A DNA stretch of 64,000 nucleotides from Candidatus Microsaccharimonas sossegonensis. Its GTDB lineage: Bacteria > Patescibacteriota > Saccharimonadia > Saccharimonadales > Saccharimonadaceae. Below the pieces are notes generated by a model. That model had not been told where the DNA came from. It was given only the letters and a program-made list of their open reading frames with translations, and made no database searches. The DNA is taken from positions 186,001 through 250,000 of the forward strand of contig SCKX01000001.1 of assembly GCA_004100325.1 (NCBI GenBank), given 5' to 3'. The position numbers and the translations under genes were made by a program. This document shows positions 56,433 through 63,109 of the stretch, piece by piece (the first letter of the stretch is position 1; each line of letters starts with the position of its first letter).

Positions 56433-57455
56433 TTATTTAGCACCAATACCAATAAGCCCAACGTTCATCGGATCGGCACTTTCAGCACGATTCACGCTAA
56501 ACTGTAGGTTATCGATTATCTCTGTTGCGACAACTGTTTTATTAGCTTTATCGTATGAAGTAACGGTGATAGATAAGTGAGCAGTGCTTTGAAATGAATC
56601 AGTTACTCCTGAAGAGTTAATGTTATCAATGACGGGCGGTATATTATCGAAAATAGTGGCCTTCAATTTATCAGCGGATACATCGGTCGTCCCTGAGTTA
56701 ATAACATACACGGCATTTGATCCGTATTTACTGACAACGCCAGCTAATATATCAACAAGTTTCGGTGAGCTTGGATTGTAGAAGCCAGTGTACTTATTAA
56801 ATTCATCTTTGATAACACTCACTTGGTTTGGAAGTGGGTTTTTTGCAAGAAGATTCATAAAACGGTTCATTTCAGGAAGTGCCTGATTGAATTGATCAAC
56901 CGAAGTTTGTGTCGTAACCTCGGCACCGGGCTGAAGTTTTAATATGTCAAAGCCAAGTGGACTGGTCGCCGCATTAGGTGTTGCGTCGAAGTTATAGCCA
57001 GTAAAGTAGTCAGGACCTACAGTCAGGTCTTTGCCAGGGTTTGCAATTAGATAAGCTACTTCAGAATTAAACACTGCTTTAGGGTCTGCATAACGGTTTT
57101 TATATGCATTGATAAAATCTCGTTCTTCTTGAGAAATGACTGCTGTCTGTCCATTGCTTGATCCAGGCTTTGTCTCATTTGTGCCAGATGTTGTTTCGCC
57201 TATTTTTAGGGCACCAAAACCTATACCTATGAGTGCAAGGGCAGTCGTCCCTGCGACAAATGCTTTCCCTTTTTTCGTTTCAATATAACCACGGAGACCG
57301 GTTCGTTCTGGTTGTTCACTTGTCGGTATTAGATTAACATTTTTTTCATCAGAATCGATGGTACTCCCCTCAATTGGTGAATGGAATGTGATGCTTTCAA
57401 TATTTGGGTTTTGAAACCCGTTAGATTCTGGCACGTGACGTGTTCCTTTTCGCAC
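56433..57455 (-). CDS. Hypothetical membrane-anchored protein
   Basis: 340 aa, TM near residue 75 (KGKAFVAGTTALALIGIGFGALKIG). Confidence 0.65.
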   Translation of the reverse strand: MRKGTRHVPESNGFQNPNIESITFHSPIEGSTIDSDEKNVNLIPTSEQPERTGLRGYIETKKGKAFVAGTTALALIGIGFGALKIGETTSGTNETKPGSSNGQTAVISQEERDFINAYKNRYADPKAVFNSEVAYLIANPGKDLTVGPDYFTGYNFDATPNAATSPLGFDILKLQPGAEVTTQTSVDQFNQALPEMNRFMNLLAKNPLPNQVSVIKDEFNKYTGFYNPSSPKLVDILAGVVSKYGSNAVYVINSGTTDVSADKLKATIFDNIPPVIDNINSSGVTDSFQSTAHLSITVTSYDKANKTVVATEIIDNLQFSVNRAESADPMNVGLIGIGAK

Positions 57456-57547: not shown

Positions 57548-57569
57548 AAAAAAGTAAATAGCTTATGTA
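57548..57569. repeat. 22-bp direct repeat, left copy
   Basis: aaaaaagtaaatagcttatgta, identical to 59032-59053. Confidence 0.9.
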
Positions 57570-57619
57570 CAAAACAGATTGTGTGATAGCAGAATACTGG
57601 ATTGGATATGGCGACTGTT

Positions 57620-58573
57620 TTAGAGTAACGTTGAGATTGGCAGAATAATGTGAGTCTTTTTGAACACCACCTCTACGGATGTATGTCCAAGCACTTTCTT
57701 TAAATTCTTATTAGTTGCAATTTTCTTCCACCCTTTTGAGCCTATAAAAATCAGTGTGTCTTCGTAAGTACGTTCGAAGCTCACGGATGCAGAAGCATGT
57801 CTAGTATAAGACATTGAGCGAAGTTGTGTCGTGAAACGCTTGAAGGCACCGTCATGGATCATTGCCTCAAGTAACTGTTTGGTAATACTTAGGTATCCAT
57901 CAGCAAGATCTAGTGATGATTTACTTGTAATCAAAGTGCTTTCAAGTGAGAAGTTTTGTTTTTGAAGCTGAAATTTATCGGTAGTGTTAAACAAACCGTA
58001 TGTATCGCTTAATGTGTCTGTAAGGTTTTCGGCAATCAGCTTACCCACCTGTCGTGCTAATGGTAATAACTCGCGGTTCAAGGTTTGTTCGCCATAGCTT
58101 TGAATAAAAACCTTCAGCTCAGAGAGTTTTATGGCTCTTTCTAAAAATAGAGGTGGGGTTAATTGAAAAGATTTTATATTAGTTACATCTAAGTCTGAGA
58201 ATTCGTCAATTGAGTACCATCTTTTCAAATGGAGTTCTTTAATAGGCTCGATAATTGTTTCTAGACCATCAATATTAACTGCTTTGGTTAGCTCGGCGGA
58301 AAGTTGACCTATAGCTGTTTCGATTCGACTCTCGCTTATGTCTAGGTCGAATCTTTGCAACAGGTGTTTACTCAACTTTGCTTTCTTACTGTATGCCCGT
58401 AGCTCAATGTAAACCAGACCACCATGGTATGTTTTTCCAATAAGATCATAATCAACATACTTATATAACTTTTTGCTAGACAACAGATCAACAAGACTCA
58501 TATAAATGAGGTGTTCATAGAGGTGCCCTAGTTGAATTGATTGTGATTTTTTTACAAAAATATAATGCTGCAT
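57620..58573 (-). CDS. M16-like peptidase-domain protein (HxxEH motif), single domain
   Basis: GHLYEHLIYMSLVDLLSSKKLYKYVDYDLIGKTYHGGLVYIEL. Confidence 0.5.
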   Translation of the reverse strand: MQHYIFVKKSQSIQLGHLYEHLIYMSLVDLLSSKKLYKYVDYDLIGKTYHGGLVYIELRAYSKKAKLSKHLLQRFDLDISESRIETAIGQLSAELTKAVNIDGLETIIEPIKELHLKRWYSIDEFSDLDVTNIKSFQLTPPLFLERAIKLSELKVFIQSYGEQTLNRELLPLARQVGKLIAENLTDTLSDTYGLFNTTDKFQLQKQNFSLESTLITSKSSLDLADGYLSITKQLLEAMIHDGAFKRFTTQLRSMSYTRHASASVSFERTYEDTLIFIGSKGWKKIATNKNLKKVLGHTSVEVVFKKTHIILPISTLL

Positions 58574-58622
58574 AGTAGTTGCTCGTATTATAAACGTAAA
58601 CGAAGTACTCTGAAAAGGAATG

Positions 58623-58654
58623 GTGCCCCCGCTGACCTAGATCGGCGGGGGCAC
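58623..58654 (-). terminator. Strong GC-rich hairpin downstream of the small basic gene
   Basis: GTGCCCCCGCTGA-CCTAGA-TCGGCGGGGGCAC, 13-bp stem with one wobble. Confidence 0.7.
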
Positions 58655-58687
58655 ATTGGGCTAGAGCATCAGGCCGAAGCCTGTGTG

Positions 58688-58858
58688 TCACCAGCTACGG
58701 CGACCCTGTGTGTTCTTGCCCTTGGTGTCGTGGACTTTGCGGGAGTCCTGCCCCTTTGACTTCTTCGGGGCGCCGAGGTTTGCGACGCGGTCGACGAACG
58801 ACTGCTGCTTCCCGGACTTCTTCGGGCTGTAAGACCTGAAGTTTGGCTTTTTCGCCAC
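58688..58858 (-). CDS. Small highly basic protein (56 aa) in a GC-rich island
   Basis: GTG start at 58858 with upstream GAGAGGAAG; (M)AKKPNFRSYSPKKSGKQQSFVDRVANLGAPKKSKGQDSRKVHDTKGKNTQGRRSW, stop TGA. Confidence 0.6.
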   Translation of the reverse strand: MAKKPNFRSYSPKKSGKQQSFVDRVANLGAPKKSKGQDSRKVHDTKGKNTQGRRSW

Positions 58859-59031
58859 TGTGAAACTTCCTCTCGAGAGGACGATAAAGGTATCGTGACC
58901 GTGTCTAAATCGAGGGTGACCTAAACATGAATGTATAATTACACATTTATGTAATAAAATCAATCCTTATGTAGTAAGGATACAAGTACTCTTATGTAAT
59001 ACCTAAACCCTATCAACGTACGGTAAGTGCA

Positions 59032-59053
59032 AAAAAAGTAAATAGCTTATGTA
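59032..59053. repeat. 22-bp direct repeat, right copy
   Basis: aaaaaagtaaatagcttatgta, identical to 57548-57569. Confidence 0.9.
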
Positions 59054-59098: not shown

Positions 59099-59503
59099 AT
59101 GAAGATAACACAAACAATAAAAACACTCGTTATCAGCGCCCTATTCTTCATGACGGGTTTTGCGTTGGTAGCTTCAACAAATACCTTTGCAGCAAATCAA
59201 TGTGGTGGCGTGGAAACAGCCATCATTAGCTGTACTCAAAAAGGTGGACTAAAGGCTACGGTCGAAAACACGGGGGCGTGGGGTATTCTACTCCTCGCTA
59301 TCAACATCCTTACCGCTGGCATTGGTATTGCGGCTATCGGTGGTATCGTTTATGGCGCTATTCTTTACACTTCAGCTGGTGGCAGTCCGGAACAGGTAAA
59401 AAAGGCAACGACGATTATTACAAATGTCGTGATTGGGGTGGTGGCGTATGCGCTGATGTTCTCTGGGCTTAACTTCCTTATTCCTGGAGGCTTGTTTAAC
59501 TAA
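59099..59503 (+). CDS. T4SS pilin-like (TrbC/VirB2-type) protein 1
   Basis: Signal peptide plus two TMs; AAIGGIVYGAILYTSAGGSPEQVKKATTIITNVVIGVVAYALMFSGLNFLIPG. Confidence 0.85.
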   Translation: MKITQTIKTLVISALFFMTGFALVASTNTFAANQCGGVETAIISCTQKGGLKATVENTGAWGILLLAINILTAGIGIAAIGGIVYGAILYTSAGGSPEQVKKATTIITNVVIGVVAYALMFSGLNFLIPGGLFN

Positions 59504-59979
59504 TGAAACCTATGAAAAAATCAATTGTCATTTTGTCATTCGCAGTAGTTGTTGCTGCACCGGCTGTTACTTTGGCGGCACCGCAAAGTTCGTTTGCGGC
59601 CACACCCAAGACACCGGCGGATTGCGAAAAAGCGCTTCTTCCGGGTATTAACCCGTGGTTTAGAGGTTTAACGACGGTAACTAATGGAAAATGTGAAATA
59701 GTTTCACCGGGCGGACAGCTATCCGGTGGTAAAACACTTGACCTTGCGGGATTTATTTGGCGAATCGCCTTGAATATCGTTGACATTGGGCTTGCGATCG
59801 TCGGCTATATCGCCTTTATCTTTATACTGTATGGTGGCTTCCAGTTCCTTACGGGAGGAAATAACCCTAGTCAAATCGAAAAAGCGCGTAAAACCATACT
59901 AAACGCAGTGGTTGGATTGGTGATATCGCTTGGGGCTGTTGCTATTATTAACCTTATTTTTGGAATTATCGGTGGATAA
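59503..59979 (+). CDS. T4SS pilin-like protein 2
   Basis: VGYIAFIFILYGGFQFLTGGNNPSQIEKARKTILNAVVGLVISLGAVAIINLIFGII. Confidence 0.85.
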   Translation: MKPMKKSIVILSFAVVVAAPAVTLAAPQSSFAATPKTPADCEKALLPGINPWFRGLTTVTNGKCEIVSPGGQLSGGKTLDLAGFIWRIALNIVDIGLAIVGYIAFIFILYGGFQFLTGGNNPSQIEKARKTILNAVVGLVISLGAVAIINLIFGIIGG

Positions 59980-59980
59980 C

Positions 59981-60286
59981 ATGAGTAATTTTTTTATGAA
60001 ATTTGCCGTCGGCCTTGTGGGAGACAGTAACAATACAAACATTAACATCCCAACTTTATCGGCTGGACAAGTGCTACAGAATGGGCTTAATATTGCCTAT
60101 TTCCTGGCAGGTACGATTGCGGTCATTGTCATTATTGTTGGTGGGATTATGTATGCCACCTCGGCTGGTAACAGTGGAAATGTATCAAAGGCAAAAAACA
60201 TGCTTCTTTACTCGGTTGTCGGGCTAGTAATTGTGATTGCGGCCTATGCGATTACGAACTTTGTTATTGTGAGGTTTAATTCATGA
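59981..60286 (+). CDS. T4SS pilin-like protein 3
   Basis: AGTIAVIVIIVGGIMYATSAGNSGNVSKAKNMLLYSVVGLVIVIAAYAITNFVI; ATG at 59981. Confidence 0.85.
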   Translation: MSNFFMKFAVGLVGDSNNTNINIPTLSAGQVLQNGLNIAYFLAGTIAVIVIIVGGIMYATSAGNSGNVSKAKNMLLYSVVGLVIVIAAYAITNFVIVRFNS

Positions 60287-60660
60287 AAAAACTACGAAAT
60301 CTCGTTATGATTTTAGGAATTGCTGTCGGTGTCGGCGTATTGGCGCCAGCAGTGAGCGCAAACGCTGCGAATGTGATCGCTAATCAGTGCGCAGGTGTGA
60401 CCAATTCTGCTGTTTGTAAAAATCAAAATGCTAAACCGAACGACCTGATTGCAAAAATCGTCAATACCCTCCTATTCGTAGTCGGTGCGCTAGCGGTTAT
60501 CATGATTATTGTCGGTGGTTTGTTGTACGCTACCTCTAGTGGAGATCCAAGTCGTGTTACGATGGCAAAGAATACGCTGATGTATGCGATTATTGGATTG
60601 GTCGTGGCATTCCTGGCATTTGCTGTCGTTAATTTTGTGATCGTAAAATTTACCAAATAG
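60283..60660 (+). CDS. T4SS pilin-like protein 4
   Basis: VGALAVIMIIVGGLLYATSSGDPSRVTMAKNTLMYAIIGLVVAFLAFAVVNFVI. Confidence 0.88.
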   Translation: MKKLRNLVMILGIAVGVGVLAPAVSANAANVIANQCAGVTNSAVCKNQNAKPNDLIAKIVNTLLFVVGALAVIMIIVGGLLYATSSGDPSRVTMAKNTLMYAIIGLVVAFLAFAVVNFVIVKFTK

Positions 60661-60733
60661 CTCCCCTTAACAAAAGGTGCTATATCTGCTATAACAGTAC
60701 CAAGAGATTCTATAAGAAAGGAATATCAATACC

Positions 60734-61126
60734 ATGAAATTTACAAAAAAGACGTTAGCAGGATTTGCAGGGTCAACAGCGCTTGCCGTCGCTGCTGTGC
60801 TTGTCCCTACGAGTGTATTTGCTCAACAAACTGACATACAAGGTGGAATCAATGCAGCCAAGCCAAGCGGTGCCGCTGGTAACACGACCCTATTTGGTGA
60901 CGGTTCAATCTTTACTACTATTGTAAACATCCTACTATACCTTATCGGAGCAATTTCAGTGATTATGCTCATCATCGGTGGTATCCGCTACACCGTCTCG
61001 GCTGGTGACAGTGGAAACGTCACGGCTGCCAAAAATACGATTATGTACGCAATTATCGGTCTGATCGTCGCATTCCTTGCATATGCAATTGTAAACTGGG
61101 TACTAAAAGCGCTCACAAACGGATAA
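60734..61126 (+). CDS. T4SS pilin-like protein 5
   Basis: IGAISVIMLIIGGIRYTVSAGDSGNVTAAKNTIMYAIIGLIVAFLAYAIVNWVL. Confidence 0.88.
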   Translation: MKFTKKTLAGFAGSTALAVAAVLVPTSVFAQQTDIQGGINAAKPSGAAGNTTLFGDGSIFTTIVNILLYLIGAISVIMLIIGGIRYTVSAGDSGNVTAAKNTIMYAIIGLIVAFLAYAIVNWVLKALTNG

Positions 61127-62704: not shown

Positions 62705-63109
62705 CTAAACGTTCGTACCGCCAGATGTAGCACCAGGAGCAAGTGTATTTATAACGAAATTGATAGCCGCATAGGCGAGAAAAGCGATCACAAGCCCAAC
62801 AATCGCATAAAGAACCGTATTTTTTGCCGCTGTCACTGCGGTTGAGTTACCCCCAGAAACGACGTAGCGAAGTCCGCCAACGATTAGCATAATAACACTA
62901 AGCGCCCCGACAATAAAAAGAAGAAAGTTGGTGATATTGGTCACGATGCCACCACCACCAAATAGTTCTGTTGGCTGCCCAGTCCCCTTTGCGGCATTAA
63001 CACCGTCAAAAACAGTCAGCGCAAAGGAAGTACGGGCGAGAAAAATAGATGCACCAAGCACAAGAACGACTGCAAGGAGCACTGGTGCAAATGATCGTAA
63101 AATTTTCAT
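62705..63109 (-). CDS. T4SS pilin-like protein 6
   Basis: VGALSVIMLIVGGLRYVVSGGNSTAVTAAKNTVLYAIVGLVIAFLAYAAINFVI. Confidence 0.88.
   Translation of the reverse strand: MKILRSFAPVLLAVVLVLGASIFLARTSFALTVFDGVNAAKGTGQPTELFGGGGIVTNITNFLLFIVGALSVIMLIVGGLRYVVSGGNSTAVTAAKNTVLYAIVGLVIAFLAYAAINFVINTLAPGATSGGTNV

What the first reader, a model, noticed from the sequence alone, without database searches (positions are those of the whole stretch)
58615..58915. Very GC-rich micro-island encoding a 56-aa basic protein, likely foreign
Hand count: 58741-58800 is 40/60 G+C, while nearby 58441-58500 is 17/60. The ORF uses GC-ending codons, has a GAGAGGAAG ribosome site, a GTG start and a 13-bp GC-rich hairpin terminator. 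The product is Lys/Arg/Ser-rich. Transfer from a high-GC organism, for example an actinobacterial host, is a plausible origin.
Basis: partly seen in the sequence, partly recalled or inferred. Interest (0 to 1): 0.7.

Follow-up and report, generated by a model that had tools for sequence, protein, structure and literature searches.

The report
Mobile small-protein and peptidase gene pair
The GC-rich patch is a real 56-residue basic protein gene, but it is not a stray piece of actinobacterial DNA: it is one half of a previously undescribed, mobile two-gene unit (a small GC-rich disordered protein next to an M16-type metallopeptidase) scattered through Saccharibacteria, tiny bacteria that live on other bacteria.

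Summary
In detail: 58615-58915 is 58% G+C in a 42.5% window and contains a GTG-started 56-aa basic ORF (58688-58858, minus) with GC3 0.84 (genome about 0.39). The interpretation mostly fails. The ORF belongs to a family of small, basic (pI 10-12), probably disordered proteins in Saccharibacteria. In 22 loci from 21 genomes a member lies just upstream of a roughly 310-aa protein that I identify as a short M16 (insulinase-type) metallopeptidase (HxxEH...E; AlphaFold plus Foldseek); in the window this partner is 57620-58573. In all 17 pairs tested the small gene has higher GC3 than its partner, which keeps native, even AT-rich, composition. GC richness is therefore a property of the gene, not a donor signature. 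The pair is mobile: seven species of the genus have an empty site, and the window's 1,484-bp insert is bounded by a perfect 22-bp direct repeat present once in three of those sites. A 70%-identical homologue on a Mycolicibacterium plasmid indicates exchange with Actinobacteria, direction unknown. Nine loci share an undescribed intercistronic RNA pseudoknot. Best mechanism (inferred): the peptidase processes or disarms the small protein, which is the active product.

The parts
57570..59053 (.). inserted unit (1,484 bp, one repeat copy included) carrying the two genes
   Evidence: 22-bp direct repeats at both ends; relatives G014, G015, G006 have an empty site with one copy; joined flanks align with those empty sites
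57548..57569 (+). left direct repeat AAAAAAGTAAATAGCTTATGTA
   Evidence: for its 20-base core with up to 3 mismatches 0.03 matches are expected by chance, 2 found
59032..59053 (+). right direct repeat, identical copy
58688..58858 (-). small basic protein gene, GTG start, 56 aa, pI 11.2, GC3 0.84; C-terminal motif SRKVHDTKGKNxxGRxxW
   Evidence: homologues
58866..58874 (-). Shine-Dalgarno-like GAGAGGAAG, overlapping a 12-bp palindrome CCTCTCGAGAGG (58869-58880)
   Evidence: sequence; comparable palindrome or hairpin over the same spot in the L010 and L011 leaders
58623..58654 (-). GC-rich hairpin between the two genes
58587..58616 (-). promoter-like site in front of the peptidase gene (TTTTCA-18-TATAAT)
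   Evidence: consensus match only, 6 found in the region against 4.0 expected in shuffles
57620..58573 (-). 317-aa short M16-type metallopeptidase homologue, HLYEH at residues 17-21 and Glu94
   Evidence: AF2 pLDDT 86.6; Foldseek to FusC, insulin-degrading enzyme, processing peptidases; H17, E20, H21 invariant and E94 nearly invariant over 26 homologues
56433..57455 (-). left neighbour (340 aa), directly next to the pilin gene in species with the empty site
59099..59503 (+). right neighbour, type IV secretion VirB2-like pilin
   Evidence: Pfam T4SS_pilin E 4e-5, 24 bits, just under the 26.6 cut-off; orthologues in 15 of 17 genomes of the genus

Best explanation
The micro-island is the small-protein half of a mobile two-gene unit of Saccharimonadales: a GC-rich gene for a short, strongly basic, probably disordered protein, followed on the same strand by a short M16-type zinc metallopeptidase. 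Shown: the pairing, its recurrence, the predicted peptidase fold and catalytic residues, and the insertion into a type IV secretion locus of this genome. Inferred: the M16 enzyme takes the small protein as its dedicated substrate, either trimming it into an active peptide (most likely a secreted or host/competitor-directed product) or destroying it inside the producer. The hairpin or pseudoknot between the genes, and in the window a separate promoter-like site, would let the small protein be made in excess of the enzyme, as is usual for precursor peptides.
For: Small ORF upstream of the M16 gene in 22 loci of 21 genomes, including 19 of the 28 family genomes with an M16 hit. GC excess upstream of M16 genes exceeds that upstream of other genes (mean 0.128, n 20, versus 0.063, n 150; p 0.001). 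Small-gene GC3 above M16 GC3 in 17 of 17 pairs, pI 10-12 throughout. M16 fold and HxxEH...E. Sister M16 genes carry matching small-protein types: G012 with G113, G071 with G080. Small protein predicted without stable fold, mean pLDDT 60, one short helix 21-26, as would suit an M16 substrate. M16B peptidases are known to process peptide precursors (PMC8960859). Empty site and direct repeats. Intercistronic hairpin or pseudoknot.
Against: No substrate relation was tested. Cys-type small proteins also occur without a neighbouring M16 gene (genus g11, G193), and the Mycolicibacterium plasmid member has no M16 partner, so the small protein can exist alone. Nine of 28 family genomes with an M16 hit lack a recognised small ORF. 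No modifying enzyme or exporter is encoded in the unit. Between G000 and G012 the small proteins (38 of 56 identical) are more alike than the peptidases (19%).
Confidence: 0.45

Rival explanations
1. The small protein is a nucleic-acid or ribosome-binding regulator or toxin and the M16 enzyme is its antidote or turnover factor, so the pair acts like a mobile addiction module.
For: pI 10-12, K/R 13-30%, zinc-ribbon-like CxCxxC..RRNN ends in many members; sporadic distribution and insertion of the pair as a unit; nine pairs carry a structured RNA between the genes that such a protein could bind.
Against: The small gene occurs alone in the g11 and G193 lineages and on the Mycolicibacterium plasmid without the enzyme, which a toxin without antidote should not tolerate unless another gene replaces it (a roughly 105-aa gene follows it in g11 and G193).
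Confidence: 0.25
2. The small protein is an effector delivered to the host by the type IV secretion system into whose locus the pair is inserted; its GC-rich codons reflect life in contact with GC-rich actinobacterial hosts.
For: Insertion next to T4SS pilins in G000 and G012 and near T4SS genes in G063 and G148; basic tails; homologue on a Mycolicibacterium plasmid.
Against: Most other modules examined in up to 20 kb of context have no T4SS homologue nearby, so the link is occasional. A secreted protein needs no host codon usage.
Confidence: 0.15
3. One reading: recent transfer of the small gene from a high-GC actinobacterium, composition not yet adapted.
For: GC3 0.84 against 0.39; 86% DNA identity over 57 bp and about 66-70% protein identity to a Mycolicibacterium aubagnense plasmid ORF.
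Against: Same GC-rich small gene beside an AT-richer M16 gene in 17 of 17 pairs over many genera; the insert as a whole is 40.7% G+C; the diversity of the family found here lies in Saccharibacteria, with 1 hit among 72,556 plasmids and no credible hit among phages.
Confidence: 0.08
4. The GC richness is mainly an RNA feature: the transcript is a structured or dual-function RNA and the ORF is secondary.
For: The GC-rich region matches the presumed transcription unit in G000, G012 and G028; leader palindromes over the ribosome site.
Against: Synonymous-codon permutations fold nearly as well (mean z -1.1 over ten genes; window z +0.1; two genes at -2.4 and -3.8); protein motifs conserved at about 65-70% with synonymous changes at identical residues; no Rfam match.
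Confidence: 0.05

Closest known systems
M16 metallopeptidases (pitrilysin/insulinase, FusC, MPP, M16B)
   Same: Predicted fold, HxxEH zinc motif and a conserved glutamate 73 residues after it
   Different: Only about 310 aa; Pfam M16 models hardly recognise members (one weak hit of 26); found only in Saccharimonadales here and mostly tied to a small GC-rich gene
RiPP systems with M16 proteases (AlbE/F in subtilosin; PttP1/PttP2 and Bcn-gP1/Bcn-gP2 in class III lanthipeptides; PMC8960859, PMC10885120)
   Same: Small ribosomal peptide plus M16 enzyme; structured intergenic region after the peptide gene
   Different: No modifying enzyme or exporter; small proteins are basic with no evident leader/core layout; a single M16 chain in most loci
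Unannotated 63-aa ORF of Mycolicibacterium aubagnense plasmid NZ_CP122998
   Same: About 70% identical, same length class, same N-terminal KPNFRSYSPK and C-terminal SRKVHDTKG motifs
   Different: Alone, near a resolvase gene, no M16 partner

Membership tests
M16 metallopeptidase | inverted zinc motif HxxEH plus a glutamate about 70-80 residues later | tested here: met
   H17, E20, H21 invariant and E94 in at least 90% of 26 homologues
M16 metallopeptidase | M16 fold | tested here: met
   AF2 pLDDT 86.6, pTM 0.87; the 50 best Foldseek PDB matches are M16-fold proteins (FusC, IDE, pitrilysin, processing peptidases, complex III core proteins), E from 1e-5, although global TM-scores are low (0.2-0.4)
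M16 metallopeptidase | recognition by curated family models | tested here: not met
   No Pfam hit for the window protein; one weak Peptidase_M16_C hit among 26 members; no PDB sequence hit
M16 metallopeptidase | zinc-dependent peptidase activity | not testable with these tools
   needs purified enzyme
RiPP biosynthetic cluster | candidate precursor gene beside a dedicated protease gene | tested here: met
   22 pairs in 21 genomes; the substrate relation itself is untested
RiPP biosynthetic cluster | modifying enzyme and/or exporter in the cluster | tested here: not met
   the 1,484-bp window insert holds only the two genes
Recent transfer from an actinobacterium | donor-like composition across the transferred unit and absence of the same composition in the recipient lineage | tested here: not met
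   insert 40.7% G+C, M16 part 37%; same contrast in 17 of 17 pairs
Recent transfer from an actinobacterium | window gene nested within an actinobacterial clade | tested here: inconclusive
   only one actinobacterial homologue found; actinobacterial genomes could be scanned only by exact peptide patterns

The most novel reading that the evidence does not exclude
A minimal, transferable antagonism or host-interaction system of Saccharibacteria: a family of modular GC-rich micro-genes whose unusual codon composition is actively kept, each coding a disordered basic peptide matured by its own M16 enzyme, in part under control of a new pseudoknot RNA, with the peptide gene also captured by a plasmid of an actinobacterium, the usual host group.
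Probability: 0.2. Interest if true: 0.88.

Novelty: new variant of a known kind. Interest (0 to 1): 0.62.

Why it matters
Saccharibacteria depend on actinobacterial hosts, yet few of the molecules that act between them are known. This is a recurrent, mobile, experimentally small unit (two genes, 1.5 kb) with a homologue on an actinobacterial plasmid, and it has no match in Pfam, NCBIfam, PHROGs or Rfam. It also poses a clean puzzle: why a gene keeps GC3 of 0.5-0.94 in genomes of about 37-50% G+C while its neighbour does not.

Tried and rejected
Expression-driven codon bias: ribosomal genes have GC3 about 0.4. RNA-structure-driven codon choice: synonymous permutations fold nearly as well in most genes. 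Phage origin: no phage match; the weak Streptomyces phage hit (E 0.7) lies antisense to the annotated genes and is taken as chance. Viral contigs: two scans without relatives; a third with the M16 alignment could not be run. Plasmid M16 homologue: none. One shared ancestral insertion in G000 and G012: same site, but their M16 proteins as one clade are rejected (p-AU 0.008; long branches). Direct repeats around other modules: only G031 has a comparable pair (22 nt, 86%), between paralogous flanking genes, so not decisive.

Full report
WHAT WAS CHECKED. The numbers in the finding are correct. The ORF is 58688-58858 on the minus strand, 56 aa, GTG start, ribosome site GAGAGGAAG. Its GC3 is 0.84; genes of the window average 0.39 with sd 0.06, and ribosomal protein genes of the same genome about 0.4, so expression-level codon bias does not explain it. 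The window lies in contig C1 (796 kb) of a 0.81-Mb genome; its named relatives are Saccharibacteria.

HOMOLOGUES. The only plasmid hit is an unannotated ORF of Mycolicibacterium aubagnense plasmid NZ_CP122998, 86% identical over 57 bp and about 70% as protein. All seven loci found by pattern in GTDB contigs are Saccharibacteria. They share the C-terminal motif SRKVHDTKGKNxxGRxxW but have a CxCxxC..RRNN N-terminus. Profile searches find relatives in 12 of 245 genomes of the family (the last of them, G253, is marginal and holds a stop) and, in 380 genomes across the phylum, only the same family plus two marginal hits. No Pfam, NCBIfam or PHROG family matches.

THE PARTNER. In the window, G012 and G028 the small ORF precedes a roughly 315-aa protein that starts with a HLYEH motif. 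An alignment of 26 homologues keeps H17, E20, H21 and nearly always E94. AF2 gives pLDDT 86.6, and the 50 best Foldseek matches in the PDB are M16-fold proteins (FusC, insulin-degrading enzyme, processing peptidases, complex III core proteins). I conclude that it is a short, divergent M16 metallopeptidase. A profile of it hits 28 of 242 genomes of the family (21 of 61 genera), further families of the order, and, in 371 genomes across the phylum, nothing outside this family.

THE SMALL FAMILY. Looking upstream of these genes revealed GC-rich small ORFs in 22 loci of 21 genomes (starts in G071 and G113 are only probable). They form a mosaic family: KPNFRS.. N-termini, Cys-type N-termini, a short helix-like motif (SFVDRVANLGAP, QSITNAIFGPAP), and H-containing motifs (VHDTKGKN, HHDSLSQSGQQ, NPHNDGIKSN), always with a basic make-up (pI 10-12). 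That these classes are one family is my reading of shared short motifs, gene position and composition; the most distant classes do not align convincingly end to end. The window's own genome has a second module at C1:434743 (L044). The small gene has higher GC3 than its M16 partner in 17 of 17 pairs, and upstream GC excess is greater at M16 genes than at control genes (p 0.001).

MOBILITY. In seven species of the same genus the 340-aa gene (56433-57455 here) abuts the T4SS pilin gene directly. In the window 1,484 bp lie between, bounded by two identical 22-bp repeats, of which G014, G015 and G006 have one copy; the joined flanks align with those sites. G012 has a module at the same site, yet its M16 groups with that of G113 (100/99), and a G000-G012 clade is rejected (p-AU 0.008). 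This suggests repeated arrival or replacement, with the caution that branches are long. How the unit moves is unknown: it encodes no transposase or integrase.

INTERCISTRONIC RNA. The window has a strong hairpin and a promoter-like site before the M16 gene (weak evidence). Nine other modules share a GACC..GAGCCA..UGUC..AAAAC..UGGCUC element. Its two helices form an H-type pseudoknot with 94% paired cells, against 86% in shuffles and 25-36% when slid; the covariation score exceeds all 500 shuffles (few sequences, and the structure was drawn from these same sequences). A model of it finds only these modules, one copy in G181 and one in G156 (E 0.016) in 708 kb. Rfam has no match. The window's own module lacks this element.

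MECHANISM. Shown: pairing, composition contrast, predicted fold and catalytic residues, insertion. Inferred: the peptidase acts on the small protein. M16B peptidases process lanthipeptide precursors (PMC8960859), the nearest precedent, but no modifying enzyme accompanies this pair. The toxin/regulator and T4SS-effector readings remain open; the Patescibacteria T4SS itself is described in PMC12102498. Literature searches found no description of this pair.

LIMITS. Actinobacterial genomes could be searched only with exact peptide patterns; many source genomes are metagenome bins; part of G012 is masked; no expression data.

Noticed in passing
G000:C1:434743-435504 and upstream (L044:1244-1423): Second module in the same genome: Cys-type small protein (MAICRFGGIPMDTKICPCFKC...) plus a shorter M16 homologue, with the pseudoknot between them.
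   Followed up: partly
L002-L008, L035, L036: Cys-type small genes without an M16 neighbour; in G193 and genus g11 a different roughly 105-aa gene follows. Several have a terminator-like hairpin directly upstream of the start, suggesting attenuation.
   Followed up: no
L042, L046 (G029): M16 genes in tandem or divergent pairs, one member lacking HxxEH, as in M16B heterodimers; no small ORF seen there.
   Followed up: no
L050/L075 (G115): Second M16 copy split by a frame change (HLYEH start in one frame, the rest in another), a possible pseudogene or assembly error.
   Followed up: no
L086:8340-8720 (G156): Pseudoknot-like element preceded by a Gly-rich but not basic small ORF (MANPQTDPNFGNGEVGG...), a possible further class of partner.
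   Followed up: no
59099-61126: Five consecutive VirB2-like pilin-type genes on the plus strand, with a further one at 62705-63109 on the minus strand.
   Followed up: no
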